From the NCBI RefSeq assembly GCF_006965485.1, contig NZ_CP041360.1:372001-436000 (forward strand): a stretch of 64,000 nt of DNA. Reading direction: 5' to 3'. Positions 3,303-60,618 of this stretch are shown piece by piece; positions within the stretch are counted from its first letter, which is position 1, and every line of letters begins with the position of its first letter. This DNA comes from Spirosoma sp. KCTC 42546 (GTDB taxonomy: Bacteria > Bacteroidota > Bacteroidia > Cytophagales > Spirosomataceae). A program made the translations under genes and the position numbers. Below the pieces are notes generated by a model. That model searched no databases. It saw only the letters and a program-made list of their open reading frames with translations, and was not told the DNA's origin.

Positions 3303-3384
3303 TTGTTTGACGTTTGTAGTTGGATGTTGGTTGACGCATAGTTGCTTTCGCGTCAGCCAACATCCAACTACAAACGTCAAACAA
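3303..3384. repeat. Heptad-periodic palindrome (GTTTGAC type)
   Basis: The arms 3303-3337 and 3350-3384 are 35 nt each with a single mismatch and a 12-nt loop. Each arm reads as successive 7-nt units: GTTTGAC, GTTTGTA, GTTGGAT, GTTGGTT, GACGC. It begins 2 bp after the Nudix stop codon and ends 20 bp before the deaminase start, filling almost the whole intergenic space. It is one of the dispersed elements discussed in the findings. Confidence 0.85.
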
Positions 3385-3403
3385 ACATTTAAACCAAAAC
3401 ACC

Positions 3404-3838
3404 ATGGACGAATTTATGCAGGAGGCCATCAATCAAGCCCGGAAAAGCCTGAGCGAAGGCGGTATTCCCATCGGCTCGACACTCATTAAAAATGGTAAGT
3501 TGGTTGCCTCCGGGCACAACAAACGTGTGCAGGAAGACAATCCGATTCTGCACGGCGAAATGGACTGCCTGAATAATGCAGGCCGTGTTGGCTCGTTTCG
3601 GGATACGGTCATTTACTCGACGCTTATGCCCTGCTACATGTGCGCTGGTACGATTGTGCAGTTCAAAATTCCGAAAGTAATTGTTGGCGAATCGCGGACG
3701 TTTCCAGGAGCGCGGGAGTTTATGGAGCAGCATGGTGTAGAAGTAATCGACCTCGATTTGCCCGAATGCATCGAAATGATGAATCGATTCATCGCTGAGA
3801 AACCAACGCTCTGGAATGAAGACATCGGGGAGTTATGA
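3404..3838 (+). CDS. Nucleobase deaminase, probable yeast-type cytosine deaminase
   Basis: A 144-residue cytidine-deaminase-fold protein. The zinc motif is HGE (His50, Glu52 as proton shuttle) with PCYMC (Cys77, Cys80). The family match is closer to fungal cytosine deaminase Fcy1 than to tRNA or CMP deaminases: the strings EGGIPIG, GHNKR, LHGE, the length and the C-terminal tail W-NEDIGEL all correspond to that small enzyme as I remember it. It would convert cytosine to uracil for salvage. The usual bacterial enzyme CodA belongs to a different (amidohydrolase) fold. A guanine deaminase or other purine deaminase is the main alternative. The ATG is preceded by an A-rich spacer. Confidence 0.78.
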   Translation: MDEFMQEAINQARKSLSEGGIPIGSTLIKNGKLVASGHNKRVQEDNPILHGEMDCLNNAGRVGSFRDTVIYSTLMPCYMCAGTIVQFKIPKVIVGESRTFPGAREFMEQHGVEVIDLDLPECIEMMNRFIAEKPTLWNEDIGEL

Positions 3839-3907
3839 GTTAATGGCATATGTTACCTATCTAATCACGATACGTCACATATGCCACTACCGTAATCAAC
3901 TGACCCT

Positions 3908-4732
3908 GTGCGTTTTCCTGTCTTTTTTATCGCCCTAACGGCGAGCTGTATTCTTGCTGTTGAGCTACAGGCGCAGCGATCGGTAATTTGGAGTGAAAAG
4001 CCTGGAACCTGGCTACTCAACGCGGGTTTGGGTACAACACGGTATACCGGTGATTTGAGTGAATTTGGAAATGTAGCCCATTTGCAATTGGGGGCTGCCG
4101 TTAACCTGGCTGCGGCCTATAGGGTTTCGCAACAGCTTTCCTATCGGGCGGAGGTGCAGCTTTACTACATTTATGCTCAGCAAAAATATACCCGCAATTA
4201 CTACAATAATCTCTCATTCAAAAGCTTGAATCCCGACGTTTGGGCGGGTGTTCAAGTTGATTTATGGCCTGTAAATGACCCTTACAGGGCCACTATTCCC
4301 TACGTACTGGCAGGTGTGGGTATTACTTATATGAGGCCGAAGGCCGTATATCAGGGTCAATCATACGGTCTTTCTATACTCCAGACCGAAGGTGTGAACT
4401 ATAACCAATTGACGGGCAGCATTCGCTACGGATTTGGCCTGCCTCTATTGGCTAATGAGCGATTTCGGTTTAACCTGGAGGGCGCCTACACGCACGTCTT
4501 GAGCGACTATCTGGACGATGTTAGTTCGGTTTATGCTGACCGAAGCGTCATGAGTCCATTAGCCGCTGCTTTATCTGATCGGCGGGCCGAACTGGGCACT
4601 CCACTTAACCTACCCGGCGAACAGCGGGGTAATACGGGTAAAAATGACGGGTATTTTACACTAACGGGGCGTCTGGTATTCGTAATTATCACGCCAGGCC
4701 AACGTAGTTACCGCCGACAGATTGGTCGTTAG
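3908..4732 (+). CDS. Outer-membrane beta-barrel protein
   Basis: A 274-residue protein beginning with GTG and a signal peptide (FPVFFIALTASCILAVELQAQ, cleavage near residue 22). The rest alternates amphipathic strands with aromatic girdle residues: TWLLNAGLGTTRYTGDL, YRAEVQLYYIYAQQKYTRN, PYVLAGVGITYMRPK, IRYGFGLPLL, FNLEGAYTHVL and a final TLTGRLVFVII strand, typical of the eight-stranded OmpA/DUF6089-like barrels of Bacteroidota. No enzymatic motif is seen. It probably lies in the outer membrane, possibly as a structural or gliding/secretion-related component, but that is not shown here. It is monocistronic or precedes the polyprenyl synthase by 63 bp. Confidence 0.75.
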   Translation: MRFPVFFIALTASCILAVELQAQRSVIWSEKPGTWLLNAGLGTTRYTGDLSEFGNVAHLQLGAAVNLAAAYRVSQQLSYRAEVQLYYIYAQQKYTRNYYNNLSFKSLNPDVWAGVQVDLWPVNDPYRATIPYVLAGVGITYMRPKAVYQGQSYGLSILQTEGVNYNQLTGSIRYGFGLPLLANERFRFNLEGAYTHVLSDYLDDVSSVYADRSVMSPLAAALSDRRAELGTPLNLPGEQRGNTGKNDGYFTLTGRLVFVIITPGQRSYRRQIGR

Positions 4733-4752
4733 GCTTTTGGGGGCTTTTGCTG

Positions 4753-4760
4753 TAATTTTG
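4753..4760 (+). promoter_or_regulatory. Candidate -7 box for polyprenyl synthase
   Basis: TAATTTTG fits the Bacteroidota -7 consensus TAnnTTTG and lies 36 bp before the ATG of the polyprenyl synthase gene. A TTTG at 4736 is too close for a canonical -33 element and a TTG at 4724 is slightly far, so only the -7 box is convincing. Confidence 0.4.
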
Positions 4761-4795
4761 GCCTAAAACCCGGCAGTGATGCCTCCCTCAACCGA

Positions 4796-5767
4796 ATGAG
4801 TCCAGCTATTTTTGTTGATGCCCTTCAAAACGAACTCCAGTATATTCAATACGGGCAATATCCGCCCGAACTCTATGACCCCATTCGATACATTATGAGT
4901 CTAGGCGGTAAGCGCATGCGTCCGTTATTGACGCTCATGTCGACTTACTTATTCACTGATGATTGGCAAAAGGCTATTCGGCCAGCCTTGGGAGTAGAGG
5001 TTTTTCACAACTTCACGCTCATGCACGACGATATTATGGATCAGGCCCCATTACGTCGGGGGAACCCGACTGTGCATGAAAAATGGAATGGGAACACGGC
5101 TATTTTGTCGGGCGATGTGATGCTGGTGAATGCCTATCAACTGTTGCTGACCGTTGAAGCGGATAAACTAAAGCCTGCTTTGGAACGCTTTAGTCGGACT
5201 GCTGCCGAGGTGTGCGAAGGCCAGCAAATGGATATGAATTTTGAAACTCGCTGGGATGTTACCGAAGCTGAATACATTGATATGATTCGCTTGAAAACAT
5301 CGGTCTTGCTGGGTTACGCGCTTGAGCTTGGTGGTTTAATTGGCGGTGCTGATGTTGAAACCACTCGTCACCTGTACGAAGGTGGGATGAACATTGGTGT
5401 TGGTTTTCAGTTAAAAGATGATTTGCTGGATGTATACGGCGACCCCGCCAAGTTTGGTAAACAAGTTGGGGGCGACATTATCGCGAATAAGAAAACCTTT
5501 CTACTGATCGAAGCACTTCAGCAAGCGAAAGGGGCCGTTCGGGACGAGTTAACGAACTGGCTAACCCAAACAAGTTTCGACAAAAGCGAAAAAGTGCAGG
5601 CCGTGACTGCCATCTACGATCAACTAGGTATTCGTCAACAAACCGAAGCGCGAATTAACGAGTACTTTGCTCGTGGATTTGCCAACTTCGATCAGGTTAA
5701 TGCCAGATCTGACCGGAAGAATTTATTGATTCAGTTTACCCATCAATTAGTTGAACGAGAAAGCTAA
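4796..5767 (+). CDS. Polyprenyl diphosphate synthase (trans-isoprenyl synthase)
   Basis: A 323-residue all-helical prenyl transferase. The first aspartate-rich motif is DDIMD (residues 78-82) followed by the RR pair (87-88), and the second is DDLLD (208-212); GGKRMRP near residue 38 is the isopentenyl diphosphate-binding block. It condenses isopentenyl diphosphate onto an allylic primer. Phe73, five residues ahead of the first motif, is a bulky residue that in this family tends to limit chain length, so a C15-C20 product (FPP or GGPP) is more likely than the menaquinone side chain; this is inference. A -7 box precedes it, and a palindrome separates it from the rhomboid gene. Confidence 0.88.
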   Translation: MSPAIFVDALQNELQYIQYGQYPPELYDPIRYIMSLGGKRMRPLLTLMSTYLFTDDWQKAIRPALGVEVFHNFTLMHDDIMDQAPLRRGNPTVHEKWNGNTAILSGDVMLVNAYQLLLTVEADKLKPALERFSRTAAEVCEGQQMDMNFETRWDVTEAEYIDMIRLKTSVLLGYALELGGLIGGADVETTRHLYEGGMNIGVGFQLKDDLLDVYGDPAKFGKQVGGDIIANKKTFLLIEALQQAKGAVRDELTNWLTQTSFDKSEKVQAVTAIYDQLGIRQQTEARINEYFARGFANFDQVNARSDRKNLLIQFTHQLVERES

Positions 5768-5768
5768 C

Positions 5769-5827
5769 TGATTTACGATGTGCGAATTACGATAGCTGAT
5801 TTATCGTAATTCGCACATCGTAAATCG
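5769..5827. repeat. Heptad-periodic palindrome (GATTTAC type)
   Basis: Arms 5769-5794 and 5802-5827 are about 26 nt and nearly perfect with a 7-nt loop. The strand reads GATTTAC, GATGTGC, GAATTAC, GATAGCT, GATTTAT and then the reverse units, so both arms keep a 7-nt register with G at unit starts. It begins right after the stop of the polyprenyl synthase gene and ends 13 bp before the rhomboid ATG, so the second gene would be translated just behind a strong hairpin. Confidence 0.8.
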
Positions 5828-5840
5828 TAAATCAATCTAC

Positions 5841-6464
5841 ATGAGCATAACCCTTATTATCATAGTCATTACGGTCCTGATCAGTATTGCGGCCTGGAAT
5901 AATTACAACCTGATGGATCGGTTGATTATGAATCCTTACCGGGTGGCAAGCCGCGGAGAATACTATCGACTGATTACGTCGGGTTTTTTGCATGCAGATT
6001 GGGGCCATTTGTTTTTTAACATGCTCAGCTTTTACTTCTTTGGTGGATTTATTGAGCAATTATTTAATTACTTATTTGCAAGCAGTGGGCCGATCTATTT
6101 AGTTGGGTTTTATTTAGCTGCCATTTTGGTGTCTGATATTCCTACGCTTCTGAAGCATAAAAACGATCCGGGATACAATTCGCTGGGTGCGTCTGGGGGC
6201 GTATCGGCCATTATTTTTGCCGCAATTCTATTTCGCCCATTAACGCCTATCTACCTGTTTTTTATCCCAATTGGGATTCCCGGATTCATTTTTGGCCCCT
6301 TATATCTGGCCTATTCCTACTATGAATCTCGTCGTGGGGCAGGTAATATTAACCATGATGCCCACTTCTACGGAGCACTATTTGGTATCTTGTTCATGGT
6401 TATCGTATACCCGCAAGTACTGCCTGACTTTTTTGAACAGATAGCTGGCTGGCGATTGTTTTAA
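5841..6464 (+). CDS. Rhomboid family intramembrane serine protease
   Basis: A 207-residue polytopic membrane protein with about six hydrophobic segments. The TM2 motif HLFFN (His56, Asn60), the nucleophile motif GASG (Ser118) and the TM6 motif HFYGALFG with His175 together form the rhomboid Ser-His dyad and oxyanion support seen in GlpG. It cleaves transmembrane substrates within the inner membrane; the substrate is unknown. The ATG lies 13 bp behind the heptad palindrome. The LytTR regulator gene starts 6 bp after the stop, so the two are probably cotranscribed, which may suggest that the protease acts in a signalling pathway with that regulator (inference). Confidence 0.9.
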   Translation: MSITLIIIVITVLISIAAWNNYNLMDRLIMNPYRVASRGEYYRLITSGFLHADWGHLFFNMLSFYFFGGFIEQLFNYLFASSGPIYLVGFYLAAILVSDIPTLLKHKNDPGYNSLGASGGVSAIIFAAILFRPLTPIYLFFIPIGIPGFIFGPLYLAYSYYESRRGAGNINHDAHFYGALFGILFMVIVYPQVLPDFFEQIAGWRLF

Positions 6465-6470
6465 TTTACC

Positions 6471-7367: not shown

Positions 7368-7441
7368 AACACCCCACCATTCACCCCAGATGCCGGGTTT
7401 AGGTACCAAACATCCCTAAAGGTGCTGTTCATCCCTTTTAG

Positions 7442-7473
7442 TTGCAGCGAGCTAACGGGTTGATGTAGGTTTG
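7442..7473 (+). promoter_or_regulatory. Promoter: TTG (-33) and TAGGTTTG (-7)
   Basis: TTG at 7442-7444 is followed after 21 bp by TAGGTTTG at 7466-7473, a full match to the TTG-N(17-23)-TAnnTTTG promoter of Bacteroidota. It lies 30 bp before the ATG at 7504 and thereby argues that the membrane protein starts there, not at a TTG inside the -7 box. Confidence 0.6.
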
Positions 7474-8202: not shown

Positions 8203-8901
8203 TCATTTTTGCAAGGACTCTTTAGCTGTTGCCAATGCTTTCTCAGCCCATTGCTTCATTTGCTTACCTGAATAGTGCAGGCCATCGGAGGCAAACTGAG
8301 TCTCGTCGCCGGAAGCGGATCGACTTAGGGGTGTAATGTCGATATAAGCAATGCCCAATTTTCCGCATTCTTCGTTAGCAATCGCGTTGAATTGATCAAT
8401 TGCCTGGGCAATACTGGCTTTATTTTGTCCCGCAGCAAATGGTGACACGCCCCAATCGGGAATTGAGAGCACCAATACGTGGGCTGTTTTTCCCCCCGCG
8501 AATTTTGTAGCCGTTTGTAGTAGTTCCCGAAACTCAGTACGGTAACGTTCCTGACTCTGACCCCGGTATTGATTGTTAACGCCGATCAAGAGCGAGACTA
8601 GATCATAGGTTTTCTGGTTTCCACTGGCTTTGATGGCGTCCTGTAATTCGGCTGTTGTCCAGCCTGTTCGGGCTATTATATCAGGATTTGCTATATCCAG
8701 ACCATATTTGCGGAGCAGGCCTGCGAGTTGGACACTCCAACGATCGGCTTCCGAAACACGCTCCCCAATGGTATATGAATCCCCAAGTGATAGGAAACTG
8801 TATTTCGACGCGTCGGCCTTCGGGTTCTCGATCATATTGGGTTGGGTGCATGCCAAAAAAAAGTTCAGAACCAGGATTTGTATGATTTTATTGATTGCCA
8901 T
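8203..8901 (-). CDS. SGNH/GDSL hydrolase lipoprotein
   Basis: A 232-residue protein with a lipoprotein signal (FFLAC, Cys18). Block I is LGDSYT (Ser42), the GVNN segment carries the block III Asn, and SDGLHYSG holds the catalytic Asp-His pair, so all SGNH landmarks are present. Such enzymes are esterases, lipases or acyl hydrolases; this one would be attached to the periplasmic or outer face of a membrane. The substrate is unknown. The gene is convergent with the DUF2306-like gene and shares its end point, leaving no room for a conventional intergenic terminator. Confidence 0.88.
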   Translation of the reverse strand: MAINKIIQILVLNFFLACTQPNMIENPKADASKYSFLSLGDSYTIGERVSEADRWSVQLAGLLRKYGLDIANPDIIARTGWTTAELQDAIKASGNQKTYDLVSLLIGVNNQYRGQSQERYRTEFRELLQTATKFAGGKTAHVLVLSIPDWGVSPFAAGQNKASIAQAIDQFNAIANEECGKLGIAYIDITPLSRSASGDETQFASDGLHYSGKQMKQWAEKALATAKESLQK

Positions 8902-8962
8902 GATTTCGAGCTAATATTTAGAATGAAATAAACGTGATTAGTTTATTTTCAGATTTAGCTAC

Positions 8963-9000
8963 AAAATCATAATAATCATTTAAATCATAAAAATCCTGGC
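8963..9000. repeat. Nonamer-periodic AT-rich repeat (AATCATAAn type)
   Basis: Four successive 9-nt units are seen: AATCATAAT, AATCATTTA, AATCATAAA, AATCCTGGC. It is a single arm without an inverted partner and relates to the GATTnnCAGG-type repeat at 13751. It lies between the GDSL gene and prfB, two genes on the same strand. Confidence 0.5.
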
Positions 9001-10286: not shown

Positions 10287-11687
10287 ATGGCTTCACAGTA
10301 CGATGTAATCGTTGTGGGTAGCGGGCCGGGCGGCTATGTAGCTGCTATCCGGGCGTCGCAGTTGGGTTTAAAAACCGCCGTTGTCGAACGCGAAAGCCTT
10401 GGCGGCATATGTCTGAACTGGGGCTGTATCCCAACCAAAGCCCTGCTTAAATCAGCGCAGGTTTTTGACTATATCAAGCATTCTGCCGATTACGGAATCA
10501 CCGTTTCGGGCGAATCGAAAGCTGATTTTGGAGCGGTTATCAAGCGGAGTCGGGGCGTAGCCGAGAGCATGAGCAAGGGCGTTCAGTTCCTGATGAAAAA
10601 AAATAAAATTGATGTGATCAATGGTTTTGGTAAGGTAAAGCCCGGTAAGAAGATCGACGTAACGGCTGCTGATGGGAAAGTTACTGAGTACGAAGCCAAA
10701 CACATCATTATTGCTACCGGAGGCCGTGCCCGCCAATTACCGAGTGTGCCCATCGACGGCAATAAAGTGATTGAGTATCGTAAAGCCATGACACTCGACA
10801 AGAAACCCGACAGTTTACTGGTGATCGGTTCTGGGGCAATTGGGGTTGAATTCGCCTACGTATACGCCAGTATGGGTACTAAAGTGACGATTATCGAGTT
10901 TCTGCCAAACGTGGTACCCGTTGAAGACGAAGACATCTCGAAAGAGCTGGCTAAGCAATACAAAAAGATTGGCATCGATATTTACACCAAATCAGAAGTA
11001 ACGAAAGTAGATACCAGCGGCAACGGCTGTAAAGTATTTGTGAAGACACCAGACGGGGAGAAAACCTTTGATGTCGACATCGTGTTGTCGGCAGCTGGCG
11101 TTGTTGCCAACATTGAAAACCTGGGACTGGAGGAAACCGGAATTTCCGTTGATCGGGGCAAAATCGTAACCGACGATTATTACCGGACTAACGTTGAAGG
11201 TTATTATGCTATTGGCGATGTAACAAAAGGTCAGGCGCTGGCGCATGTGGCCTCAGCAGAAGCTATTATTTGCGTTGAAAAAATTGCGGGCTTACCCCAC
11301 GTAGAGCCACTGAATTACAACAATATTCCAGGCTGTACGTACTGCACCCCCGAAATTGCATCAGTTGGTTACACCGAAAAAGCAGCTCGCGAGGCTGGCT
11401 ATGAGTTGAAGGTGGGTAAGTTTCCCTTCTCGGCGTCGGGTAAAGCAAAAGCTGCTGGCGCGCCGGAAGGTTTCGTGAAAGTTATTTTTGATGCTAAATA
11501 TGGTGAATTCTTAGGCGCTCACTTTATTGGTGCCAACGTAACCGAAATGATTGCTGAGGTAGTAGCCGCCCGTAAACTGGAAACAACGGGCGAAGAAATC
11601 CTGAAGACGGTTCACCCGCACCCAACCATGTCGGAAGCCATTAAAGATGCGACCGAAGCTGCTTACGGCGAAGCGATTCACTTGTAA
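10287..11687 (+). CDS. lpdA: Dihydrolipoyl dehydrogenase (E3)
   Basis: A 466-residue flavoprotein disulfide reductase. The FAD dinucleotide motif is GSGPGGYVAA (residues 11-20), the redox-active disulfide is CLNWGC (Cys42, Cys47), the NAD motif is GSGAIGVEFAYVYASMG and the catalytic His-Glu pair is in HPHPTMSEA near the C-terminus. It reoxidises dihydrolipoamide of 2-oxoacid dehydrogenase complexes and the glycine cleavage system with NAD+. It stands alone with its own promoter, so it can serve several complexes. LipB in this same window (55477) supplies the lipoyl groups. The stop codon lies inside the left arm of a long palindrome. Confidence 0.95.
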   Translation: MASQYDVIVVGSGPGGYVAAIRASQLGLKTAVVERESLGGICLNWGCIPTKALLKSAQVFDYIKHSADYGITVSGESKADFGAVIKRSRGVAESMSKGVQFLMKKNKIDVINGFGKVKPGKKIDVTAADGKVTEYEAKHIIIATGGRARQLPSVPIDGNKVIEYRKAMTLDKKPDSLLVIGSGAIGVEFAYVYASMGTKVTIIEFLPNVVPVEDEDISKELAKQYKKIGIDIYTKSEVTKVDTSGNGCKVFVKTPDGEKTFDVDIVLSAAGVVANIENLGLEETGISVDRGKIVTDDYYRTNVEGYYAIGDVTKGQALAHVASAEAIICVEKIAGLPHVEPLNYNNIPGCTYCTPEIASVGYTEKAAREAGYELKVGKFPFSASGKAKAAGAPEGFVKVIFDAKYGEFLGAHFIGANVTEMIAEVVAARKLETTGEEILKTVHPHPTMSEAIKDATEAAYGEAIHL

Positions 11688-11784
11688 TAAATGGATAATG
11701 TAAAATGCACAATGAATAATGATGAGGTACTGGTAACCTATAGCCACTCATTATTCATTGTGCATTTTACATTATCCATTTATT
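11686..11784. repeat. Heptad-periodic palindrome (AATGnnn type) spanning two stop codons
   Basis: Arms 11686-11722 and 11748-11784 are perfectly complementary over 37 nt, with a 25-nt loop. The units are AATGGAT, AATGTAA, AATGCAC, AATGAAT, AATGA. The lpd stop codon (11685-11687) touches the left arm and the stop codon of the opposing glycosyltransferase (11780-11782) lies inside the right arm. It can act as a bidirectional terminator, although the stem is AT-rich. Confidence 0.88.
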
Positions 11785-13750: not shown

Positions 13751-13840
13751 GATTCGTATGATTTAAAAGATTCACAGGATTTTTTACCTTGCCAAACGTT
13801 ATAATCCTGTGCATCTGTCAAATCCTGTGAAAATTCCTGT
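13751..13840. repeat. Nonamer-periodic inverted repeat (GATTnnCAGG type) containing the helicase start
   Basis: The left arm (13751-13785) reads GATTCGTAT, GATTTAAAA, GATTCACAG, GATT in steps of nine; the right arm (13801-13840) contains inverted units of the same kind (aatcctgtg, catctgtca, aatcctgtg). The arms are imperfectly complementary. The GTG codons at 13809 and 13827 that can start the following helicase gene lie inside the right arm. Confidence 0.65.
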
Positions 13841-16800
13841 TCAGACTGTTCTAAAAACCTTTCGCCGACGCTTAACTAACCTGAGTAGTCGTAACCGTTC
13901 ACTACTACTGACAAGCTTGCCTGCCGGACAGTTTCTGGATTTGCAGGAAACGGATTTTCTGCTCAACAAACCGGCCTTTAACATCATCACTGATCTGATT
14001 AGCCGTAAACCGTCGGTTGCTTTATGTGAGGTGCTCGATCCACGCCAGGAACGTAGTAATGAAGTAAGCCGGAAACTTCGTCGGATTGACCGTACGGCGC
14101 GATTTATTGAAGAGGAGCGGGGAACCGAAGATTTATACGTTGGGTGGCCATTTGTAAAAGGCAAGTTTCTGGACGAAACAGTCGTTCATGGGCCGCTACT
14201 TTTCTTCCCCGCACAGATTGAACAGCAAGGGAAATTCTGGAAACTCACGCGCCGGGGCGATGAGTTAGCGTTTCTGAATCCAACGCTGGCTTTGGCATAT
14301 GGCCAGTTTAACCAGGTGAAATTGCCTGATGAACTCATTGAAAAAACAATGGATGAGTTTGATCGAGACCCCATTGCGTTTCGAACTCAATTGTACGAAT
14401 GGCTTAAAACCACCCCACTTGAAGTCAATTTCAACCCCGATTTATTTGCTGATAAGCTCCAGTTTTTTAACAAGCAAACCACCAAAGATCTCGCTCAACT
14501 CGAACGTACTGGCGAATTAAAGTTATATCCCGAAGCGGTTCTAGGTATTTTTCCACAAGCGGGTTCATTTCTGGTGCCTGATTACGATGCGCTTATCGCA
14601 CGGAGCGAGGTGCATGGAGCAGAGGAGAAGATTCTGGTCGAGGAGGCTAAAGCTGACGCTAGAGAGTTGTTTCCTTCATTCCTTTTCCCTACTCCTGGCT
14701 CCCTGCTCCCTGCGTCCTTCCTTCCAGAAAGAAATATTCACACTCCCTTGCCGATGGATGCCTCACAGGAGGCCGCAGTACGAGCGGTGAAAGCTGGTCA
14801 GTCGTTGGTAGTTCAGGGGCCACCGGGTACGGGTAAGTCGCAACTGATTGCGAATTTGATGGCTGATGCGGCTGCGTCGGGTAAGCGTGTATTATTGGTA
14901 TGTCAGAAACGCGCTGCACTCGATGTAGTGCAGGAGCGCCTTCGGCAGGTGGGTATGGCACCGTTTCTGGCCTTGATTCACGATTTTCAGGATGACCGCC
15001 GTGCATTATATGCGCAAATTGCCAATCAGATCAACCAGATTGAAGCCTATCGCCAACAAAACAACAGTTTAAATGCAGTTCTATTCGAGCGTGATTTCGA
15101 TGTGGAAAGCCGCCGGATTGATGAGACAGTTGCTGAATTACAGGTGTTCAAACAGTCCCTTTTTGATACAACAGAGAGTGGTGTATCTGCTAAAGAGCTC
15201 TATTTAACCTGCAATCCAATGGCCCCCGTAATCCCACTGGATGATATTTATCCAGAATTCCACTTGTCGAATGTGGATAACTTTGTTCGGAGGTTGATAG
15301 ATTATGCCGCTTATCAGCAACGGCTGGGGCTAGAACATGCGTGGACAGAACGGGTTAGCTTTGCTTCATTCACAAACGCAGATTTAGGCAAAGTGGATCA
15401 AACTATTGCTCGTTGGGCTCAACTGCGCGAGCATACTAACCTGCAAACAGCGCAGTTGGTAGGCCAGGCACTTTCAGTAGCTGAATTGGCCGATTGGCAA
15501 GCTCATGATTGGGAACTGACGGCTTTGCTGAATTTGCTGGATTCGCCAGACGCTGCTGAGCTTTGGGGCGTGATCAATCAGTTACGAAACTCAACCAATC
15601 ACCCTGCACTTGCGACTGACGAAGCGAAGTTTGAGCAAATTGCCCGCGCCTGGGAGGAGTCTTTGGAATCGCCCGGTCCGGAGATTTTATTACCTACAGC
15701 TGAGTTAAGATCGTTTCGATTCTTATTGGAGAACGCGCTTACGGCTCGCTCCTCATGGGTTAGCTGGAACTGGTGGCAATTAACTAATGCTGGAAAAACA
15801 CAACTACAAGCGGTAGCTTCTGCAAATTCGCTGACAGTATCAGAAGTAGATTTACAGATACTCGCCACAAAAATTGATAAACGTATCCGGCTGGAAGCTA
15901 CCCGCTATGAAGCAACTACGCTATTAGCTGAATTGTCGCTTCCCGAAATGCCAGACAGTATGCGGCTCTTACGTCGGGCGCGGCATATAACCGAACGCGT
16001 TCAGGCTATTGTGCCATTACATAAGTTAGCAGAGCCCTCCTGGCAAACTCGGGAGCAATTTATAGGTGACGTGAAGGCGCTACTGAGTTTGGCTATCGCT
16101 GTAGAGCAAGAACGAACGGCTGGACAACCCTACCTAACCACTAATCAGCTCAATAGAATTTGGGAAGACAACCCGTTTGCTATAACTCTACGGCAGATTC
16201 TCCGTAGTGATTTTGATCTGCTGGTCGAAGCCGACCGGTTACAGGAGGGTTTTTCGGAGAGTGAGCAAACGGTTATTGATCGCCTGAGAAACCAGGAAGC
16301 AACCCAGTGGGTCGAGATCTTCCAAACGAGCTTGGCGCAGGTCTGGCTTGACCACCTTGAACGAATATACCCGGAACTTCGGAGTGTATCGTCGCTTAAA
16401 ATGAGCCAGTGGGAGCAATCGCTTCAGGAAAGTGTCCTTCGCAAACAAACGCTAAGCCGGGACATTCTTCTCGTCAAACTCCGCGAACAAACCTATCGAA
16501 ATCTGACGCTTAACCGCCTGAATAATGTGGTCACCTATCGTGATTTATTGCATCAGACAACCAAAAAACGGAACGTGTGGCCAGTTCGGAAACTGATGGA
16601 GTCGTTTGCTGATGAAGTGTTCAAGTTAGTACCCTGCTGGTTGGCTTCTCCTGAATCTGTTTCAGCCATGTTTCCCTTAACAGAGGGCTTATTCGACCTG
16701 GTTATATTTGATGAGGCTTCACAGTGTTTTGCTGAGAATGGTGTTCCGGCTGTAATGCGCGGTAAACAGGTGGTGGTGACGGGCGACAATCAACAGCTTC

Positions 16801-19895: not shown

Positions 19896-19981
19896 GGTTT
19901 ACGGTTTTCGGTTTACAGTTTACGGTCGGCTGACGCGAGTATCGACTGCTTTGCGCCACCGTAAACCAAATACCGTAAACC
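19896..19981. repeat. Heptad palindrome whose arms differ by one unit (GTTTACG type)
   Basis: The left arm (19896-19926, 31 nt) reads GGTTTAC, GGTTTTC, GGTTTAC, AGTTTAC, GGT. The right arm (19958-19981, 24 nt), reversed, reads GGTTTAC, GGTATTT, GGTTTAC, GGT. The length difference is exactly 7 nt. It fills the gap between rpoA and rplQ. Confidence 0.85.
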
Positions 19982-19984
19982 GGC

Positions 19985-21019: not shown

Positions 21020-21118
21020 AAAAGGAGTTTTCAGTTTTCTGTTTTAAGTTCTCAGGTCAATCGACTACGTATCGGATCAATCAACTGAAAACCGAAAACT
21101 GATTAACTGTAAACTTTT
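21020..21118. repeat. Heptad-periodic repeat pair (AGTTTTC type)
   Basis: The left array reads AGTTTTC, AGTTTTC, TGTTTTA, AGTTCTC, AGGTCAA. The right array, reversed, reads AGTTTAC, AGTTAATC, AGTTTTC, GGTTTTC, AGTTGAT. They are in inverted orientation but only roughly complementary, as if the units had been reshuffled. It lies between rpsD and rpoA. Confidence 0.65.
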
Positions 21119-22846: not shown

Positions 22847-22922
22847 AAGTTTGTAGTTCGTAGTTTGAAGTTTGTAGTTATTAGAGGGTAAACCTCAAAC
22901 TACGAACCACAAACTTCAAACG
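22847..22922. repeat. Heptad palindrome (TTTGTAG type) between rpmJ and infA
   Basis: The left arm reads TTTGTAG, TTCGTAG, TTTGAAG, TTTGTAG, TTATTAG (22850-22884). The right arm (22894-22922) is the inverse of about 23 nt of the left arm with one or two mismatches. Its end touches the infA stop codon, so the infA mRNA carries a strong hairpin at its 3' end. Confidence 0.82.
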
Positions 22923-27023: not shown

Positions 27024-27100
27024 AAGTTTGAAGTTTGGAGTCTGAAGTTTAATGTTACCTGTTAAAAAACGTCGAACATCAAACTTCAAACGGCAAACCT
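27024..27100. repeat. Heptad palindrome (GTTTGAA type) between rplF and rplR
   Basis: The left arm reads GTTTGAA, GTTTGGA, GTCTGAA, GTTTAAT, GTT; the right arm, reversed, reads GTTTGCC, GTTTGAA, GTTTGAT, GTT. Units stay in register, with one more unit on the left. The right arm reaches the rplF stop codon at 27100-27102. Confidence 0.8.
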
Positions 27101-30795: not shown

Positions 30796-30880
30796 CAGTT
30801 TGCCGTTTGCAGTTTGACGTTTGTAGTTAATGTCAGGAAATCTTGTTGAACACCGAACTTCAAACCTCAAACGTCAAACT
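30796..30880. repeat. Heptad palindrome (GTTTGnn type) between rpsC and rplP
   Basis: The left array reads GTTTGCC, GTTTGCA, GTTTGAC, GTTTGTA, GTTAATG. The right array (30849-30880), reversed, reads GTTTGAC, GTTTGAG, GTTTGAA, GTTCGGT, GTT. The arms pair in the middle and share the 7-nt register. Confidence 0.78.
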
Positions 30881-32201: not shown

Positions 32202-32271
32202 GGCTCGGTGCTCGGTGCTCAGCGCTCGGTTTTTTACAATACCATGCTCCTTGCTCTCTGCCCCATGCTGG
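32202..32271. repeat. Heptad-periodic repeat (GCTCGGT type) between rpsS and rplV
   Basis: Two arrays: GCTCGGT, GCTCGGT, GCTCAGC, GCTCGGT (32203-32230) and ATGCTCC, TTGCTCT, CTGCCCC, ATGCTGG (32244-32271). Both keep a 7-nt period, but they are in direct rather than inverted orientation. It fills the whole gap between the two genes. Confidence 0.7.
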
Positions 32272-32273
32272 AT

Positions 32274-32552
32274 TTATCGTTTGCCCTTGTCTTTCTTTGC
32301 GGTGTGTCCCCGGAAGTTACGCGTTGGTGAAAATTCACCGAGCTTGTGACCTACCATGTTCTCCGTTACATAAACCGGGATAAACTTGTTGCCGTTGTGA
32401 ACAGCGAAGGTATGGCCTACGAAATCCGGCGAAATCATCGAACGACGCGACCAGGTTTTGATGACCGATTTCTTGCCCGAATCATTCTGGGTCTGAACCT
32501 TATTGTCCAGACGGAAATCAATATATGGGCCTTTTTTGAGTGAACGTGCCAT
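32274..32552 (-). CDS. rpsS: 30S ribosomal protein S19
   Basis: 92 residues: [40 protein letters not shown] and [21 protein letters not shown]19 lies in the 30S head and contacts the A-site finger. Length is standard. Confidence 0.97.
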
Positions 32553-35538: not shown

Positions 35539-36000
35539 TTATTCTATCTGATTGAATATGTATCGCTCGTCATAAGGCACATTGAATTTGTTTAAAAACG
35601 CCGTATATCCTTCTAGGAACGTTCGCTTTCTATGATGTTCTTTCTGGTTGCTAATGTATTGGACGACTTCATCAATTTGAGAGTGGCTATAAGAGAAAGC
35701 TCCATAGCCCGTTTGCCATTCGAAATGCCCTTTTACTAATCGCTTGTCATTAATCCATTTCGATGAATCACCTTTTAAATCCTGCATCAAGTCAGAAATG
35801 GATTGTTTGGGATTAATGCCAATAAAAGCGTGGATATGATCGGGCATTCCGTTAATGGAAAGGAGCTTATGCCCTTGATTCTGAATAATGCCAGTCATGT
35901 AGCGGTATAAATCTTCTTTCCAGGCTGATTGAATAAGTCCGTAGCGGTGTTTGACCGCAAAAACGGTGTGTAAGTAGATTTGGGTGTAGGTGTTTGGCAT
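35539..36000 (-). CDS. REP-associated tyrosine transposase (RAYT, IS200/IS605-like)
   Basis: A 153-residue Y1 HUH transposase. The HUH motif is HIH (His55, His57) in NGMPDHIHAFIGI, and the catalytic tyrosine is Tyr115 in VVQYISNQKEHH. The start MPNTYTQIYLHTVFAVKHR at 36000 is typical of IS200-like proteins; a longer frame to 36078 runs into a REP element and is rejected. There is no accessory TnpB and no IS200 end hairpin other than the REP-like palindromes on both sides (35401-35527; 36028-36094), so this is a domesticated-type RAYT that acts on REPs rather than an autonomous IS. Confidence 0.88.
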   Translation of the reverse strand: MPNTYTQIYLHTVFAVKHRYGLIQSAWKEDLYRYMTGIIQNQGHKLLSINGMPDHIHAFIGINPKQSISDLMQDLKGDSSKWINDKRLVKGHFEWQTGYGAFSYSHSQIDEVVQYISNQKEHHRKRTFLEGYTAFLNKFNVPYDERYIFNQIE

Positions 36001-36027
36001 ACGGATTAGACGGTGATTTATTGGTTT

Positions 36028-36094
36028 GGTCGCTATGCGACCAGAAAAAAGGGTAGCCGATTCATGTGCTACAAACATTTAGTCGCTATGCGAC
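36028..36094. repeat. REP-like palindromes upstream of the RAYT gene
   Basis: Two palindromes, ggtcgctatgcgacc (36028-36042) and gtcgctatgcgac (36082-36094), with gctacaaacattta between them, mirror the group on the other side of the gene. The loop bases differ (tat here, gta or taa there). Confidence 0.8.
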
Positions 36095-41901: not shown

Positions 41902-41910
41902 ACGTACTTG

Positions 41911-41983
41911 AACACAGAGGAGCGGAGTACACTGAGAGGGTTTGCCTGACAGATTTCTTTTTGTACTCTGTGTCTCTGTGTTT
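41911..41983. repeat. Nonamer-periodic inverted repeat (ACACAGAGG type)
   Basis: The left arm reads ACACAGAGG, AGCGGAGTA, CACTGAGAG in 9-nt steps (from 41912). The right arm 41963-41983 (gtactctgtgtctctgtgttt) is the inverse of the first 21 nt with four mismatches. It lies between the M16 stop and the -7 box of the riboswitch transcript. ACACAGAG-type repeats are also seen at 48728. Confidence 0.72.
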
Positions 41984-41992
41984 AAATTCCCC

Positions 41993-42000
41993 TACCTTTG
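41993..42000 (+). promoter_or_regulatory. Candidate -7 box of the B12 uptake operon
   Basis: TACCTTTG fits TAnnTTTG and lies 11 bp ahead of the first conserved bases of the cobalamin riboswitch. A -33 TTG at standard distance is not evident. Confidence 0.5.
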
Positions 42001-42010
42001 CCCTGAGTTT

Positions 42011-42262
42011 TTGGTGCCTTATGTCGCTTCATAGCGACTTTCAAGGCTTAAAAGGGAAGTTGGTGCAACGCCAACACTGTCCCCGCAACTGTAAGTCTTA
42101 TTGAATGTATAATTTATAATGTAGAGTGAATAATGGTGTTACAGCCATTTTACATTGATCATTATTCATTGTCCATTAAAAATCGGTTCATTCTTCGTAG
42201 CCACTGTGCTGATTATCAGTATGGGAAGGCCAGAGCCGACGAGACGAGTCAGGAGACCTGCC
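42011..42262 (+). promoter_or_regulatory. Cobalamin riboswitch with an inserted heptad hairpin
   Basis: Aptamer landmarks appear in the right order: ttggtgcc and ggcttaaaagggaag around a P2-like hairpin (gtcgcttcatagcgac), ggtgcaacgcc, ctgtccccgcaactgtaag, then the B12 box gccactg (42200-42206), tatgggaaggccagagccga and the 3' segment gagtcaggagacctgcc. Between ctgtaag and the B12 box, where natural riboswitches tolerate variable arms, lies an 80-nt heptad palindrome (42103-42179). Downstream, hairpins at 42281-42297 and 42307-42323 may form the expression platform. Adenosyl- or methylcobalamin binding would switch off the following receptor operon. Confidence 0.92.
42103..42179. repeat. Heptad palindrome (AATGnnn type) inside the riboswitch
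   Basis: The left arm reads AATGTAT, AATTTAT, AATGTAG, AGTGAAT, AATGG; the right arm, reversed, reads AATGGAC, AATGAAT, AATGATC, AATGTAA, AATGG. The two arms are in register, and a short loop tgttacag remains. It belongs to the same AATG family as the elements at 11686, 46830 and 57450. Confidence 0.82.
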
Positions 42263-42342
42263 AAAGACCATCCGTTGTTCTGGTGTTCGGAGGAAACGCC
42301 CCAACCGCGTGCTGTTGACGCACAATTTGTTCAGAAGTTATA

Positions 42343-46110: not shown

Positions 46111-46190
46111 AATATGTGTGGCAAAAAGGCGTAAAGCAGGGCCGAAATTTAAATTTCGGCCCTGCTTTACGCCTTTTTGCCACACATATT
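46111..46190. repeat. Perfect 80-bp palindrome without a loop
   Basis: The 40 bases 46111-46150 (beginning aatatgtgtggcaaaaaggc) are the exact reverse complement of 46151-46190; symmetry stops at both outer edges (g/a). The centre is gaaatttaaatttc. It lies 26 bp after the stop of the Dph6-like gene and 111 bp before the next start on the same strand. As RNA it gives a 38-bp hairpin and probably terminates the B12 operon. As DNA it could extrude a cruciform; such palindromes are usually destroyed by SbcCD-type nucleases. Confidence 0.92.
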
Positions 46191-46301: not shown

Positions 46302-46832
46302 ATGAAACGTAGAGAAGCCTTGCAACAAGCGGCTCTGATGATGGGCGGCATCTTGTCGGCGCCCACACTGGCAGGCGCTATGGGGCGTATTACCAACACC
46401 GGGCCAAGCATGGCTGTTTCGGCTGAACAGGAGACCCTACTTGCTGAAGTGGCTGATGTGATTATCCCAACCACCAGCACTCCGGGAGCAAAGTCCGCTG
46501 GTGCCGAGAAGTTCATTGTGCGTGTCATGCGCGATTGCTACCCGAAAGCCGATCAGGAGAAATTTTATGCCGGATTGGCCAAACTGGATGCTGATAGTAA
46601 AACCAAATTCGGCAAAGGGTTTGTGGAATTAGATACGGCGCAGAAAAACGAAATGGTAAAGCAGACCATGACCGATGATAAGCCTTTCTTCCTCCGTATG
46701 AAAGAGCTGACTACAACGGGCTATTTTACATCGGAAATTGGAGCCACAAAAGCGCTTGAATACTTACCTGTACCGGGCCAGTTCAATGGCTGCATGACCC
46801 TTAAACCCGGCCAGAAAACGTGGGCGCTCTAA
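46302..46832 (+). CDS. Gluconate 2-dehydrogenase subunit 3 family protein
   Basis: 176 residues starting at ATG 46302; a longer frame would read through the palindrome. The N-terminus MKRREALQQAALMMGGILSA resembles a twin-arginine signal. The body carries the family segments EVADVIIPTTSTPGAKSAGA, VRVMRDCYPK and QFNGCMTLKPGQKTWAL. In known systems this small subunit accompanies an FAD (GMC) large subunit and helps its export through the Tat pathway. The large subunit gene follows after a heptad palindrome (98 bp). Confidence 0.87.
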   Translation: MKRREALQQAALMMGGILSAPTLAGAMGRITNTGPSMAVSAEQETLLAEVADVIIPTTSTPGAKSAGAEKFIVRVMRDCYPKADQEKFYAGLAKLDADSKTKFGKGFVELDTAQKNEMVKQTMTDDKPFFLRMKELTTTGYFTSEIGATKALEYLPVPGQFNGCMTLKPGQKTWAL

Positions 46833-46922
46833 TGTATAATGAATAATGCACAATGAATAATTGAATTGAGATGTGTGCTATTGCATAGCCATTATCAATT
46901 TTCCATTATTCATTATCCATTC
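46830..46922. repeat. Heptad palindrome (AATGnnn type) between the two dehydrogenase subunit genes
   Basis: The left arm starts in the stop codon (TAATG) and reads AATGTAT, AATGAAT, AATGCAC, AATGAAT, AATTG. The right arm, reversed, reads AATGGAT, AATGAAT, AATGGAA, AATTGAT, AATGG. It ends 9 bp before the GMC start codon, so it would hide or shape the ribosome-binding region. Confidence 0.8.
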
Positions 46923-48727: not shown

Positions 48728-48802
48728 CCACAGAGGTACTGAGAAACGAAAAAGAATTGGTTAGCTAAGTTAAAACCTACAACTCTTTCTCAGTCTCTGT
48801 GC
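48728..48802. repeat. Nonamer-periodic inverted repeat (CCACAGAGG type)
   Basis: The left arm reads CCACAGAGG, TACTGAGAA, ACGAAAAAG in 9-nt steps (48728-48754). The right arm 48784-48802 (tctttctcagtctctgtgc) is its inverse with gaps. It separates the convergent GMC and sigma factor genes. Confidence 0.7.
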
Positions 48803-56671: not shown

Positions 56672-56691
56672 TTTCTTGACCCCTAAATCGT

Positions 56692-57429: not shown

Positions 57430-57449
57430 GGTTTTAGAAATGAATAATA

Positions 57450-57537
57450 TTTAATGAGTAATGTAAAATGAATAATGGACAATGCGTTAAGCTACCTATG
57501 CACATTATCCATTATTCATTTTACATTACTCATTAAA
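57450..57537. repeat. Heptad palindrome (AATGnnn type) upstream of rnr
   Basis: Arms 57450-57486 and 57501-57537 are 37 nt with two to three mismatches and a 14-nt loop. Units: AATGAGT, AATGTAA, AATGAAT, AATGGAC, AATGCG. Additional units (AATGAAT, AATATTT) extend the left arm to about 57439. Confidence 0.86.
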
Positions 57538-57597
57538 CAACCTCTATCCACACTGTATTTAAACATTTTAGCCTGACGAATGAGTTAGGCAAACAAC

Positions 57598-60078: not shown

Positions 60079-60105
60079 AAAGTAAAGACTTGTTTAGTAA
60101 CGGGC

Positions 60106-60137
60106 TTGCGTTTTAGTGTAGCAATCTGCTATATTTG
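60106..60137 (+). promoter_or_regulatory. Promoter of tRNA-Arg: TTG (-33) and TATATTTG (-7)
   Basis: TTG at 60106-60108 and TATATTTG at 60130-60137 stand 21 bp apart, matching the Bacteroidota promoter. The tRNA begins at 60160, so the precursor has a short 5' leader. Confidence 0.65.
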
Positions 60138-60159
60138 CACTCCCAAACGGGAAACGTCT

Positions 60160-60231
60160 GCTTCCGTAGTTCAATGGATAGAATTTCGGTTTCCGGTACC
60201 GACGATAGGGGTTCGAATCCCTTCGGGAGCA
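60160..60231 (+). tRNA. tRNA-Arg (anticodon CCG)
   Basis: The cloverleaf is complete: acceptor GCTTCCG/CGGGAGC with one T-G pair, D-arm GTTC/GAAT, anticodon stem TCGGT/ACCGA with loop TTCCGGT and anticodon CCG (reads CGG, Arg), variable CGAT, T-arm AGGGG/CCCTT with loop TTCGAAT, discriminator A. The 3' CCA is not encoded (ACAGA follows), so it is added after transcription. A terminator follows at 60245. Confidence 0.95.
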
Positions 60232-60244
60232 CAGATAATTCAAT

Positions 60245-60284
60245 AAAAATCCCTGCAATTCTCAGATTTGCAGGGATTTTTTTG
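60245..60284 (+). terminator. Terminator after tRNA-Arg
   Basis: aaaaatccctgcaa and ttgcagggattttt form a 14-bp inverted repeat around an 9-nt loop, with a T-run of seven at the 3' side. Typical intrinsic terminator 13 bp after the tRNA. Confidence 0.88.
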
Positions 60285-60455
60285 TTTATAGTCAATTAGT
60301 TAGGTGTGACAGCGTTAGTATGTTAAAGCCCGTGTTAATCCTAGCTTATTCGACTTTACACCTTTTGATAAAGAAGATTATGTGATTCCACAAATGTTTG
60401 TTTGTGTCGTATTTAGAATCATAGTGCTGTAAAAGCAACCAAAGTAAACTATGAA

Positions 60456-60618
60456 GCTGTTTAAACTTTTCAAATTAACCGCAAAGAACGCTAAGGCAAA
60501 GCGCAAAGACCGCAAAGAAATTCAGTCAGCAAACTCAGCGTTCTTTGCTACTTTGTCTCAGCGCTCTCTGCGGTTAAACTAAAGCGCATTGGAGATATAA
60601 AAAATAAAGTTTAAACAG
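60456..60618. repeat. Nested inverted repeat with CGCAAAGAn nonamers
   Basis: The outer arms ctgtttaaacttt (60457-60469) and aaagtttaaacag (60606-60618) enclose inner arms of about 45 nt: ttaaccgcaaagaacgctaa (from 60475) against gcgctctctgcggttaa (to 60578), which pair with several mismatches. The inner left arm shows 9-nt steps CGCAAAGAA, CGCTAAGGC, then CGCAAAGAC, CGCAAAGAA. It lies between the tRNA terminator and the giant gene; the surrounding 60290-60450 contains no gene that I can support. Confidence 0.75.

What the first reader, a model, noticed from the sequence alone, without database searches (positions are those of the whole stretch)
3303..60618. A dispersed family of intergenic palindromes built from degenerate 7-nt or 9-nt units
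At about 17 loci in 64 kb the spaces between genes contain long inverted repeats, or single arms, whose sequence has an internal period. Period 7: 3303, 5769, 11686, 19896, 21020, 22847, 27024, 30796, 32202, 42103, 46830, 57450, and one in coding DNA at 14692. Period 9: 8963, 13751, 41911, 48728, 60456. The unit sequence differs between loci (GTTTGAA, AATGAAT, GTTTACG, GATTTAC, AGTTTTC, GCTCGGT; ACACAGAGG, GATTnnCAG, CGCAAAGAn), while the layout (two mirrored arms, 25-45 nt each, short unique loop) stays the same. A common architecture with different sequences argues for a process that generates mirrored arrays, not for copies of one mobile element. The closest known parallel is the heptanucleotide STRR repeats of cyanobacteria, which are direct tandem repeats.
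Basis: partly seen in the sequence, partly recalled or inferred. Interest (0 to 1): 0.9.

Follow-up and report, generated by a model that had tools for sequence, protein, structure and literature searches.

The report
Mirrored repeats are tiny hairpin elements
The odd mirrored repeats between this bacterium's genes look like the gene-less forms of two families of tiny hairpin-shaped genetic elements, one carrying a four-helix-bundle protein and usually built on 7-letter steps, the other carrying a nuclease; this could explain heptamer repeats long known in cyanobacteria and other bacteria.

Summary
In the 45 window gaps, 17 inverted repeats, 11 with periodic arms, stand against 0.04 and 0.00 per shuffle. 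They are neither one mobile element nor a gene-free process. In this genome, and across Bacteroidia, S23 / four-helix-bundle genes (PF05635) sit in the loop of mirrored arrays of period 7, and GxxExxY nuclease genes (PF13366) in the loop of CRCAGAK- or GATT-type arrays spaced 9-11: 79-80% of the fetched loci, against 7 of 426 control ORFs. The unit arm-gene-arm is present or cleanly absent at orthologous junctions. Solos are shared, absent, or of another unit type at one junction. On cyanobacterial plasmids S23 sits inside mirrored heptamers of many sequences. Best reading: hairpin elements like the 23S rRNA intervening sequences, free in operons, with gene-less derivatives. Not shown: that the proteins move the hairpins. 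Solo number follows gene presence only loosely.

The parts
3303..3384 (.). solo palindrome, S23-type period-7 arms (GTTTGNN), 35-nt arms 97% complementary
   Evidence: S23 arm match z 5.8; fold z -13.8
5769..5834 (.). solo palindrome, period 7 (GATTTAC / GATGTGC); relatives carry GTATGAT-type arms at the same junction
   Evidence: no S23 arm match above chance (z 0.7)
8871..8999 (.). solo palindrome, GxxExxY-type (AACCAGGATTT...), GATT units about 9 apart
   Evidence: GxxExxY arm match z 5.8
11686..11784 (.). solo palindrome, S23-type AATGNAT units, 37-nt arms 100% complementary, between convergent genes; same type in 4 relatives, unrelated hairpins in others
   Evidence: z 7.2
13753..13831 (.). 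solo palindrome, GxxExxY-type GATT units
   Evidence: z 6.5
19896..19982 (.). solo palindrome, GGTTTAC units with GGCTGACGC inner core; same type in G156; AGTCG-, GGGGCTA- or GTTTGTA-type units in other relatives
   Evidence: z 12.0
21026..21115 (.). solo palindrome, AGTTTTC units
   Evidence: S23 arm match not significant (z 1.8)
22847..22921 (.). solo palindrome, AGTTTGT units, conserved in G180 and G156
   Evidence: z 6.6
27024..27098 (.). solo palindrome, AGTTTGA units, same type in G180; other units in G156 and G149
   Evidence: z 3.1
30796..30879 (.). solo palindrome, GTTTGNN units (imperfect); AGTC-type units in G180 and G154 (a related one in G178), GTTTC-type in G156, GGTTTTC-type in G149
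   Evidence: (z 8.3)
32203..32275 (.). pair of G-rich heptamer arms (GCTCGGT), barely complementary; similar in G149; GTTTG, AGTTGTA or GGTTTTC units in other relatives
   Evidence: z 2.1
41908..41985 (.). solo palindrome, GxxExxY-type CACAGAG units, just upstream of the riboswitch
   Evidence: z 2.9
42104..42183 (.). solo palindrome, S23-type AATGNAT units, inside a cobalamin riboswitch; shared with G156, absent in G180 (15-nt junction)
   Evidence: z 5.6
46830..46921 (.). solo palindrome, AATGNAT units overlapping the stop codon of the upstream frame; AGTCGAC- or AGTTGTA-type units in relatives
   Evidence: z 14.2
48728..48800 (.). short palindrome, CACAGAG units, between convergent frames; GxxExxY-type only by a small margin
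   Evidence: GxxExxY z 3.7, score 13.0; S23 z 2.7, score 12.5
57438..57539 (.). solo palindrome, AATGNAT units
   Evidence: (z 7.2)
60471..60580 (.). solo palindrome, GxxExxY-type TTAACCGCAAAG units
   Evidence: (z 8.5)
41995..42279 (+). cobalamin riboswitch RF00174 that hosts the 42104 palindrome
   Evidence: 81.1 bits

Best explanation
The periodic palindromes are the arms, or gene-less (solo) forms, of two families of small hairpin elements. Family A carries one gene in the loop, an S23 / four-helix-bundle protein, and its arms are mirrored arrays, mostly of 7-nt steps, whose sequence differs freely between elements. Family B carries a GxxExxY PD-(D/E)XK nuclease, and its arms are CRCAGAK- or GATT-type units 9-11 nt apart. 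Shown: association of gene and arm class, in Bacteroidia and beyond; arm-gene-arm units present or absent as a block; presence, absence and change of unit type of solos at fixed junctions; sense orientation of gene-bearing elements with their neighbours; position just behind stop codons. Inferred: in the transcript the arms fold into a long hairpin that is cut out, as RNase III does to the rRNA intervening sequences with the same gene, so an insertion inside an operon, or in a riboswitch, costs little. The protein, alone or with host replication or repair enzymes, recognises hairpins of its own spacing and spreads both its own element and the solos, which are deletion or trans-copied derivatives.
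For: Read by eye, the flanks of the 6 S23 and 6 GxxExxY genes of this genome are mirrored periodic arrays; by score L004 (12.0) falls below the threshold of 13 used later and L006 (13.5) is just above it. Matched arms score >=13 in 59 of 75 S23 loci (fetched Bacteroidia loci plus own), 54 of 68 further S23 loci of the genus (74 of the genus's 108 matches read in all), 24 of 30 GxxExxY loci, against 7 of 426 control ORFs of 90-170 aa; 56 of 77 named S23 loci; 26 of 29 fetched GxxExxY loci of the genus (of 80 matches). These were the best-scoring family members first, not a random draw. Arm autocorrelation: S23 lag 7 0.61 and lag 14 0.62 against 0.33 expected, no other lag from 2 to 18 more than 0.01 above expectation; GxxExxY lags 2, 9, 11 at 0.41, 0.39, 0.35 against 0.29. 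Own S23 element of 494 nt: only 4 nt stand between the same flanks in G180 and G151; of 24 genus genomes resolved, 14 have 18 nt or less there, 6 (own included) an S23 element, 4 have 54-99 nt of other sequence including one solo palindrome. Own GxxExxY element: junction empty in 9 of 29 resolved loci, and in G180, where it is empty, an 88% identical full-length copy lies elsewhere. S23 sense:antisense to both neighbours 31:4 (8 mixed, 43 site groups); GxxExxY 22:1 and 20:4. Periodic palindromes: median edge 8 nt from a stop codon; 26 tandem, 7 convergent, 2 divergent gaps (crude gene calls). On plasmids of cyanobacteria and Azospirillum 12 of 13 S23 loci read have 7 as best lag, one of them weakly (z 2.0), two being one plasmid backbone; 3 of 3 GxxExxY loci show CGCAGAG-like units. 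RNase III excision of the rRNA element: PMC4990558 (abstract and introduction).
Against: No transposition was observed. Within the genus, S23 loci of one subfamily mostly share one site (105 loci with arms above threshold fall into 43 site groups), so gene-bearing copies move rarely; empty sites may be precise losses. G134 has 9 S23 genes but no solo with period z>=3 in 200 kb. AATG solos are abundant in G156 (122 matches) although no AATG-type S23 was found among the copies read there; genomes with one have 216, 3, 200, 11, 2, 87 matches, 26 of 30 without have 0-9 (Mann-Whitney p 0.003, not corrected for kinship). Protein similarity and unit similarity correlate only weakly once sites are pruned (Mantel r 0.228, 0 of 2000 permutations; signal from pairs above 55% identity). 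Three of 12 period-7 window loci match no S23 arm at z>=3. No target-site duplication was recognised by eye. About 20% of S23 and GxxExxY loci show no arms above threshold.
Confidence: 0.72

Rival explanations
1. The palindromes are made and kept by replication errors of the host: slipped-strand copying lengthens 7- or 9-nt tracts and strand-switching copies one arm into the other. S23 and GxxExxY genes are guests that settle in loops of such palindromes.
For: At junction 11686 the arms are 97-100% identical within each of 5 species but 74-89% between species. The partner arm is as good a match as, or better than, any other fetched locus in 13 of 18 GTTTG and 13 of 20 AATG solos (mean 0.83 within; best other 0.73 and 0.81). 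Unit type differs at fixed junctions.
Against: A host process has no reason to give S23 loci period 7 and GxxExxY loci spacing 9-11 in different phyla. GATT-type arms are dispersed, many at 93-100% identity. Blocks of arm-gene-arm come and go. The genome G058, without S23 or GxxExxY matches, has 20 inverted repeats in 200 kb, none periodic at z>=3; one genome only.
Confidence: 0.15
2. They are transcription terminators or 3'-end stabilisers under host selection; the hairpin matters, the sequence does not.
For: At junction 11686 9 of 12 genus loci hold an inverted repeat by the finder, and the other three a hairpin-like sequence by eye, periodic or not. Stable RNA hairpins (fold z -3.4 to -13.8 for 8 loci). 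Rare in divergent gaps (2 of 35, against 54 of 263 background gaps).
Against: Periodic ones are mostly in tandem gaps (26 of 35) and can fill a whole junction between genes on one strand; non-periodic ones are convergent more often (20 of 44 against 7 of 35, p 0.03). Several orthologous junctions are empty. Period and the genes in the loops stay unexplained. One sits inside a riboswitch.
Confidence: 0.08
3. REP/BIME-like repeats moved by RAYT (Y1) transposases.
For: The genome has 5 Y1_Tnp genes, one in the window; REPs are intergenic palindromes.
Against: Of the 5 RAYT loci two have matched flanks, with non-periodic sequences (GTCGCGTAGCGACC, AGCCCTGAAAGGGC) and lag 7 at 0.18.
Confidence: 0.03

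Closest known systems
23S rRNA intervening sequences (IVS) with S23 ORF (PMC4990558: abstract and introduction read)
   Same: S23 ORF in the loop of a stem formed by complementary ends; placed where interruption of the RNA is tolerated. In CPR rRNA insertions, where S23 genes also occur, shorter ORF-less forms are described (PMC11270868, passages)
   Different: Here in gaps of protein operons and in a riboswitch, hundreds per genome by extrapolation, with periodic arms; RNase III excision not shown here
Heptamer repeats: cyanobacterial STRR (recalled) and TAACTGA repeats (PMC4679880: abstract and section 10 read)
   Same: 7-nt units, mostly intergenic, spread over some Cyanobacteria and Bacteroidetes with no evident mechanism; L249 carries the TAACTGA unit in an arm of an S23 element
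   Different: Described mainly as direct repeats, without a gene; here mirrored, with S23 in the loop
REP/REPIN palindromes with RAYT (PMC3116915, PMC3733652: search listing only; RAYT link recalled)
   Same: Short intergenic palindromes, solos outnumber the gene, gene acting in trans suspected
   Different: Other protein families; arms defined by period rather than by one sequence
Diversity-generating retroelement Avd (PMC10053308: passages)
   Same: Avd and PF05635 are thought homologous (passages); the shared fold is recalled
   Different: No room for a reverse transcriptase in the 494-nt element
MITEs (recalled)
   Same: Inverted repeats, non-autonomous copies; GATT-type arms dispersed, many at 93-100%
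   Different: No target duplication recognised; no transposase identified

Membership tests
23S rRNA IVS (S23) elements | S23 ORF between complementary ends | tested here: met
   59 of 75 and 54 of 68 loci above threshold, control ORFs 7 of 426
23S rRNA IVS (S23) elements | lies in a helix of rRNA | tested here: not met
   the loci read lie between other genes; one solo in a riboswitch; rRNA genes were not searched for such elements
23S rRNA IVS (S23) elements | excised from the transcript by RNase III | not testable with these tools
   hairpins are predicted stable
23S rRNA IVS (S23) elements | ORF-less forms occur | tested here: met
   solos of the same units; solo at the L001 junction in G183
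REP / RAYT | associated RAYT gene with the same palindrome | tested here: not met
   RAYT flanks carry non-periodic palindromes or none (5 loci)
STRR / heptamer repeats | tandem 7-nt units, intergenic | tested here: met
   lag 7 0.61 against 0.33; cyanobacterial plasmids
STRR / heptamer repeats | direct repeats only, no mirrored partner | tested here: not met
   mirrored arms in the window and at plasmid S23 loci
Intrinsic terminators | found behind the last gene of a unit, as in convergent gaps | tested here: inconclusive
   7 of 35 periodic against 20 of 44 non-periodic convergent; U-tracts not scored
MITE | target-site duplication | tested here: inconclusive
   none recognised by eye at the junctions
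Diversity-generating retroelement | reverse transcriptase and template/variable repeat | tested here: not met
   the S23 frame of 456 nt takes up nearly all of the 494-nt unit

The most novel reading that the evidence does not exclude
Each protein family fixes the step of its arms, not their sequence: S23 elements use 7-nt units of very different sequence (GTTTGNA, AATGNAT, AGTATTA, GGGAGTA, AGTCAGA, GGGAAAA, AGCTTTT) in Bacteroidota, Cyanobacteria and one alphaproteobacterium, with subfamilies at 8-10, while GxxExxY elements use 9-11. The S23 pentamer would read, and perhaps build, a hairpin by spacing. The heptamer repeats of cyanobacteria and the TAACTGA repeats would then be parts or relics of S23 elements.
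Probability: 0.35. Interest if true: 0.95.

Novelty: new variant of a known kind. Interest (0 to 1): 0.85.

Why it matters
It gives two widespread uncharacterised small protein families (S23 / four helix bundle in 122 of 149 sampled Bacteroidia genomes, GxxExxY in 104 of 149) a genomic habitat that can be tested, and offers a source for heptamer repeats whose spread had no evident mechanism (PMC4679880). It turns the rRNA intervening sequence into one landing site of a wide class of operon-tolerated hairpins. It warns annotators: S23 genes between cas6 and cas4 or between cmr2 and cmr3 have been discussed as functions associated with cas loci (PMC3936711, one passage). A protein that works by unit spacing rather than by sequence would be new to me.

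Tried and rejected
RAYT/REP origin: rejected, other palindromes or none at RAYT ends. Ordinary terminators as the full account: rejected for tandem gaps and empty sites. A mismatched-pair null for the flank test was distorted by orthologous loci and shared units (99th percentile 64 for S23; only 1 of 72 S23 loci exceed it, 45 exceed the 95th; 22 of 35 GxxExxY loci exceed the 95th); I replaced it with random placements and control ORFs. The same kind of null on the named set puts 13.8% of mismatched pairs above threshold, because related elements share units. In one search four GxxExxY loci at contig ends had wrong coordinates and were still counted. GTTTG pattern search: its control is void, as the pattern equals its own reverse. 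Concerted evolution at gene-bearing sites (within 0.67, between 0.46, own partner arm best in 29 of 71): arms had been chosen by their within-locus match, so I do not lean on it. A shared GGCTGRCGC core in GTTTG/GGTTTAC palindromes: 6 of 20 against 164 of 2000 random windows, 0 of 20 AATG arrays, suggestive only. Literature: searches showed no paper in the held open library that links S23 or GxxExxY to periodic palindromes, judged from listings, abstracts and the passages named; subscription journals, and the cyanobacterial STRR papers I recall, were not searchable. Junction comparisons: 6 of 30 and 1 of 30 loci lacked a flank. Plasmid loci: I read 13 of 31 S23 records and 3 of 8 GxxExxY records.

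Full report
OBSERVATION. The window is bases 372,001-436,000 of an 8.66-Mb single-contig genome, probably a Spirosoma: among the named near hits of one of its proteins are Spirosoma species (inference). The mirrored periodic arrays are real. In the 45 gaps between crude genes of the window there are 17 inverted repeats with arms of 18 nt or more, 11 with a period of 7-11; 100 dinucleotide shuffles gave means of 0.04 and 0.00. In 464 kb (window plus twenty 20-kb samples) 94 such repeats occur, 27 periodic at z>=3, against 1 and 0 in one shuffle. The rest of the sample adds unit types such as GGAGGAAAGGG, GTGGAGTGAGTG, GTCATTNNNN and GAGTGAAT. The site 14692 is a direct repeat in a coding frame and 32202 is barely a palindrome.

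THE GENES IN THE LOOPS. I asked which genes have such arrays at both ends. The 6 PF05635 genes (S23, 'four helix bundle protein') and the 6 PF13366 genes (GxxExxY) of the genome read, by eye, as lying between mirrored periodic arms, although L006 and L011 have interrupted frames and L004 scores below the later threshold. In the wider set, arms were scored by local alignment of the upstream flank with the reverse complement of the downstream flank. A score of 13 or more is reached by 59 of 75 S23 loci (fetched Bacteroidia loci and own genome), 54 of 68 further S23 loci of the genus and 24 of 30 GxxExxY loci, but by 7 of 426 control ORFs of like size in three genomes and 1.8% of 1800 random placements; by 56 of 77 named S23 loci in public genomes and 26 of 29 fetched GxxExxY loci of the genus. 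The loci are the best-scoring family members rather than a random draw, and a stricter null that pairs flanks of different related loci gives 13.8% above threshold in the named set.

THE TWO GRAMMARS. S23 arms have one clear period: matches at lag 7 and 14 are 0.61 and 0.62, expected 0.33; no other lag from 2 to 18 exceeds expectation by more than 0.01. In the named set lags 7 and 14 are both 0.69. In the genus some subfamilies use 8-10 (by eye). GxxExxY arms peak at lags 2, 9 and 11, from units such as CACAGAG, CGCAAAG, ACAGGATT, often starting with AACC (by eye). The window loci fall out the same way: 9 of 12 period-7 loci match S23 arms at z>=3; of the period-9 loci 4 of 5 match GxxExxY arms at z>=3 and the fifth at 2.9, each better than S23 arms, 48728 only narrowly (13.0 against 12.5); 7 non-periodic window palindromes match neither. 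No S23 or GxxExxY match lies in the window itself.

DISCRETE ELEMENTS. The own S23 element L001 (arm, gene, arm; 494 nt) lies between a stop codon and the next ATG. In G180 and G151, with flanks 84-95% identical, only 4 nt stand there. Of 24 genus genomes with both flanks resolved (30 loci fetched), 14 have 18 nt or less, 6 (own included) hold an S23 element, and 4 hold 54-99 nt of something else, including a gene-less GGAGGAAAGGG palindrome in G183. The six S23 proteins there are 43-57% identical in 13 of 15 pairs, although the upstream gene is 78-89% identical to the own one at DNA level; the units differ too (GTTTGNA, GGTTTNC, GGTTTAT, by eye). Own against G156 (52% protein, 88.6% flank DNA) suggests replacement or independent insertion; own with G167 (78%) and G156 with G166 (82%) look inherited. 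The GxxExxY element L012 behaves alike: of 29 resolved junctions (30 fetched) 9 are empty, 17 hold 410-845 nt, 3 are in between; in G180, empty there, an 88% identical full-length copy lies elsewhere, and its 43-nt arms recur, many at 93-100% identity, in several genomes, by their coordinates often as close inverted pairs. By coordinates, 16 of the 17 long ones hold a GxxExxY match, two or more of them interrupted.

TURNOVER OF SOLOS. Seventeen window junctions were compared with up to seven relatives (unit types read by eye). Unit type differs at a fixed junction at 19896, 27024, 30796, 32202 and 46830, and also at 5769; 22847 is shared with G180 and G156; 42104 is shared with G156 and absent in G180. 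Junction 60475 could not be resolved in any relative, and several others in few. At 11686 five species hold AATG-type arms that are 97-100% identical within a locus but 74-89% between species; other species hold unrelated hairpins. Exact matches to AATGNATAATGNATAATG number 216 in this genome and 0-200 in 35 relatives, with none for the reversed control pattern.

PLACE AND ORIENTATION. In the own-genome sample, with crude gene calls, periodic palindromes lie in 26 tandem, 7 convergent and 2 divergent gaps (background 161, 48, 54) and 1 inside an ORF; their edge lies a median of 8 nt from the end of a stop codon, with a few 60-230 nt away. Gene-bearing S23 elements run in the sense of both neighbours in 31 site groups and against both in 4 (of 43; 8 mixed), GxxExxY 22:1 and 20:4. 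The 42104 solo sits inside a cobalamin riboswitch, much as intervening sequences sit in rRNA. Folding of eight solos as RNA gives z from -3.4 to -13.8.

BEYOND BACTEROIDOTA. On plasmids I read 13 of 31 records with an S23 match (Calothrix, Nostoc, Trichormus, Scytonema, Anabaena, Aulosira, Pseudanabaena, Geminocystis, Stanieria, Picosynechococcus, Azospirillum). Twelve have 7 as the best lag of their mirrored arms, with units GGGTGTA, GGGAGTA, AGTCAGA, AGCTTTT, AGGTGAC, GGGAAAA and others; Stanieria is weak (z 2.0), Trichormus and Scytonema share one backbone, and Picosynechococcus, with short arms, is the exception. The three GxxExxY loci read of 8 records (Gemmatirosa, Sphingomonas between fabD and fabG, Bernardetia) have CGCAGAGG-, CGCGAAG- or CACAGAG-like arms. 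Such heptamers are what I recall of the cyanobacterial STRR. The TAACTGA heptamers of PMC4679880 appear in an arm of the S23 element L249.

MECHANISM. Shown: gene-arm association, two grammars, block-wise presence and absence, different unit types at fixed junctions, sense orientation. Known from the rRNA elements: the stem with the S23 ORF is cut out by RNase III (PMC4990558, abstract and introduction); the S23 relative 2gsc is solved with five chains and the same paper calls it a homopentamer. Inferred: excision makes insertions in operons tolerable, hence their number; the loop protein acts on hairpins of its own spacing. The GxxExxY sequences show a D...E-x-K pattern as in PD-(D/E)XK nucleases (seen; motif recalled). 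Open: how copies are made. GTTTG arrays fetched have no near-identical copies, AATG arrays a few (0.92 over 31 and 33 nt), and arms match each other better than any other fetched locus in only part of the cases (mean within 0.83; best other 0.73 and 0.81). That leaves room for fold-back copying of one arm into the other at each move, or for ongoing strand-switch repair, without proving either.

AGAINST. Solo numbers do not simply follow the gene: G134 has 9 S23 genes and hardly a solo in 200 kb, G156 has 122 AATG matches without an AATG-type S23 among the copies read. Unit and protein similarity correlate weakly after pruning to 43 sites (r 0.228). Gene-bearing S23 copies of a subfamily share sites within the genus, so they move seldom. 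Three period-7 window loci match no S23 arm. No transposition, excision or binding was measured.

VERDICT. The finding is sound and leads further than its reader thought: two families of hairpin elements, related in layout to the rRNA intervening sequences, with gene-less derivatives that turn over at operon junctions. New variant of a known kind; the idea that spacing rather than sequence is what the protein knows would be new, and is testable.

Noticed in passing
window 35539-36078 (-): A RAYT / Y1 transposase gene flanked by its own non-periodic REP-like palindrome (GTCGCGTAGCGACC), different from the periodic ones.
   Followed up: partly
window 41995-42279: Cobalamin riboswitch with an 80-nt palindrome inside it; G180 has the junction without the palindrome.
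   Followed up: yes
window 46111-46190, 1671-1744, 60628-60689: Long non-periodic palindromes, one perfect over 80 nt; related GCGGGAGGAAACCCGC hairpins stand at some junctions in relatives.
   Followed up: no
L468, L470, L472: S23 genes inside mirrored repeats between cas6 and cas4 and between cmr2 and cmr3; such genes have been discussed among functions of cas loci (PMC3936711, one passage).
   Followed up: partly
L012 neighbour; L001 right arm: Read by eye, not computed: the frame next to L012 seems to end inside the arm, and the S23 frame of L001 runs through its right arm to a TGA that overlaps the next gene's ATG.
   Followed up: no
window 61768-63267: A 222-bp tandem repeat of about 6.8 copies inside a 1052-aa frame.
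   Followed up: no
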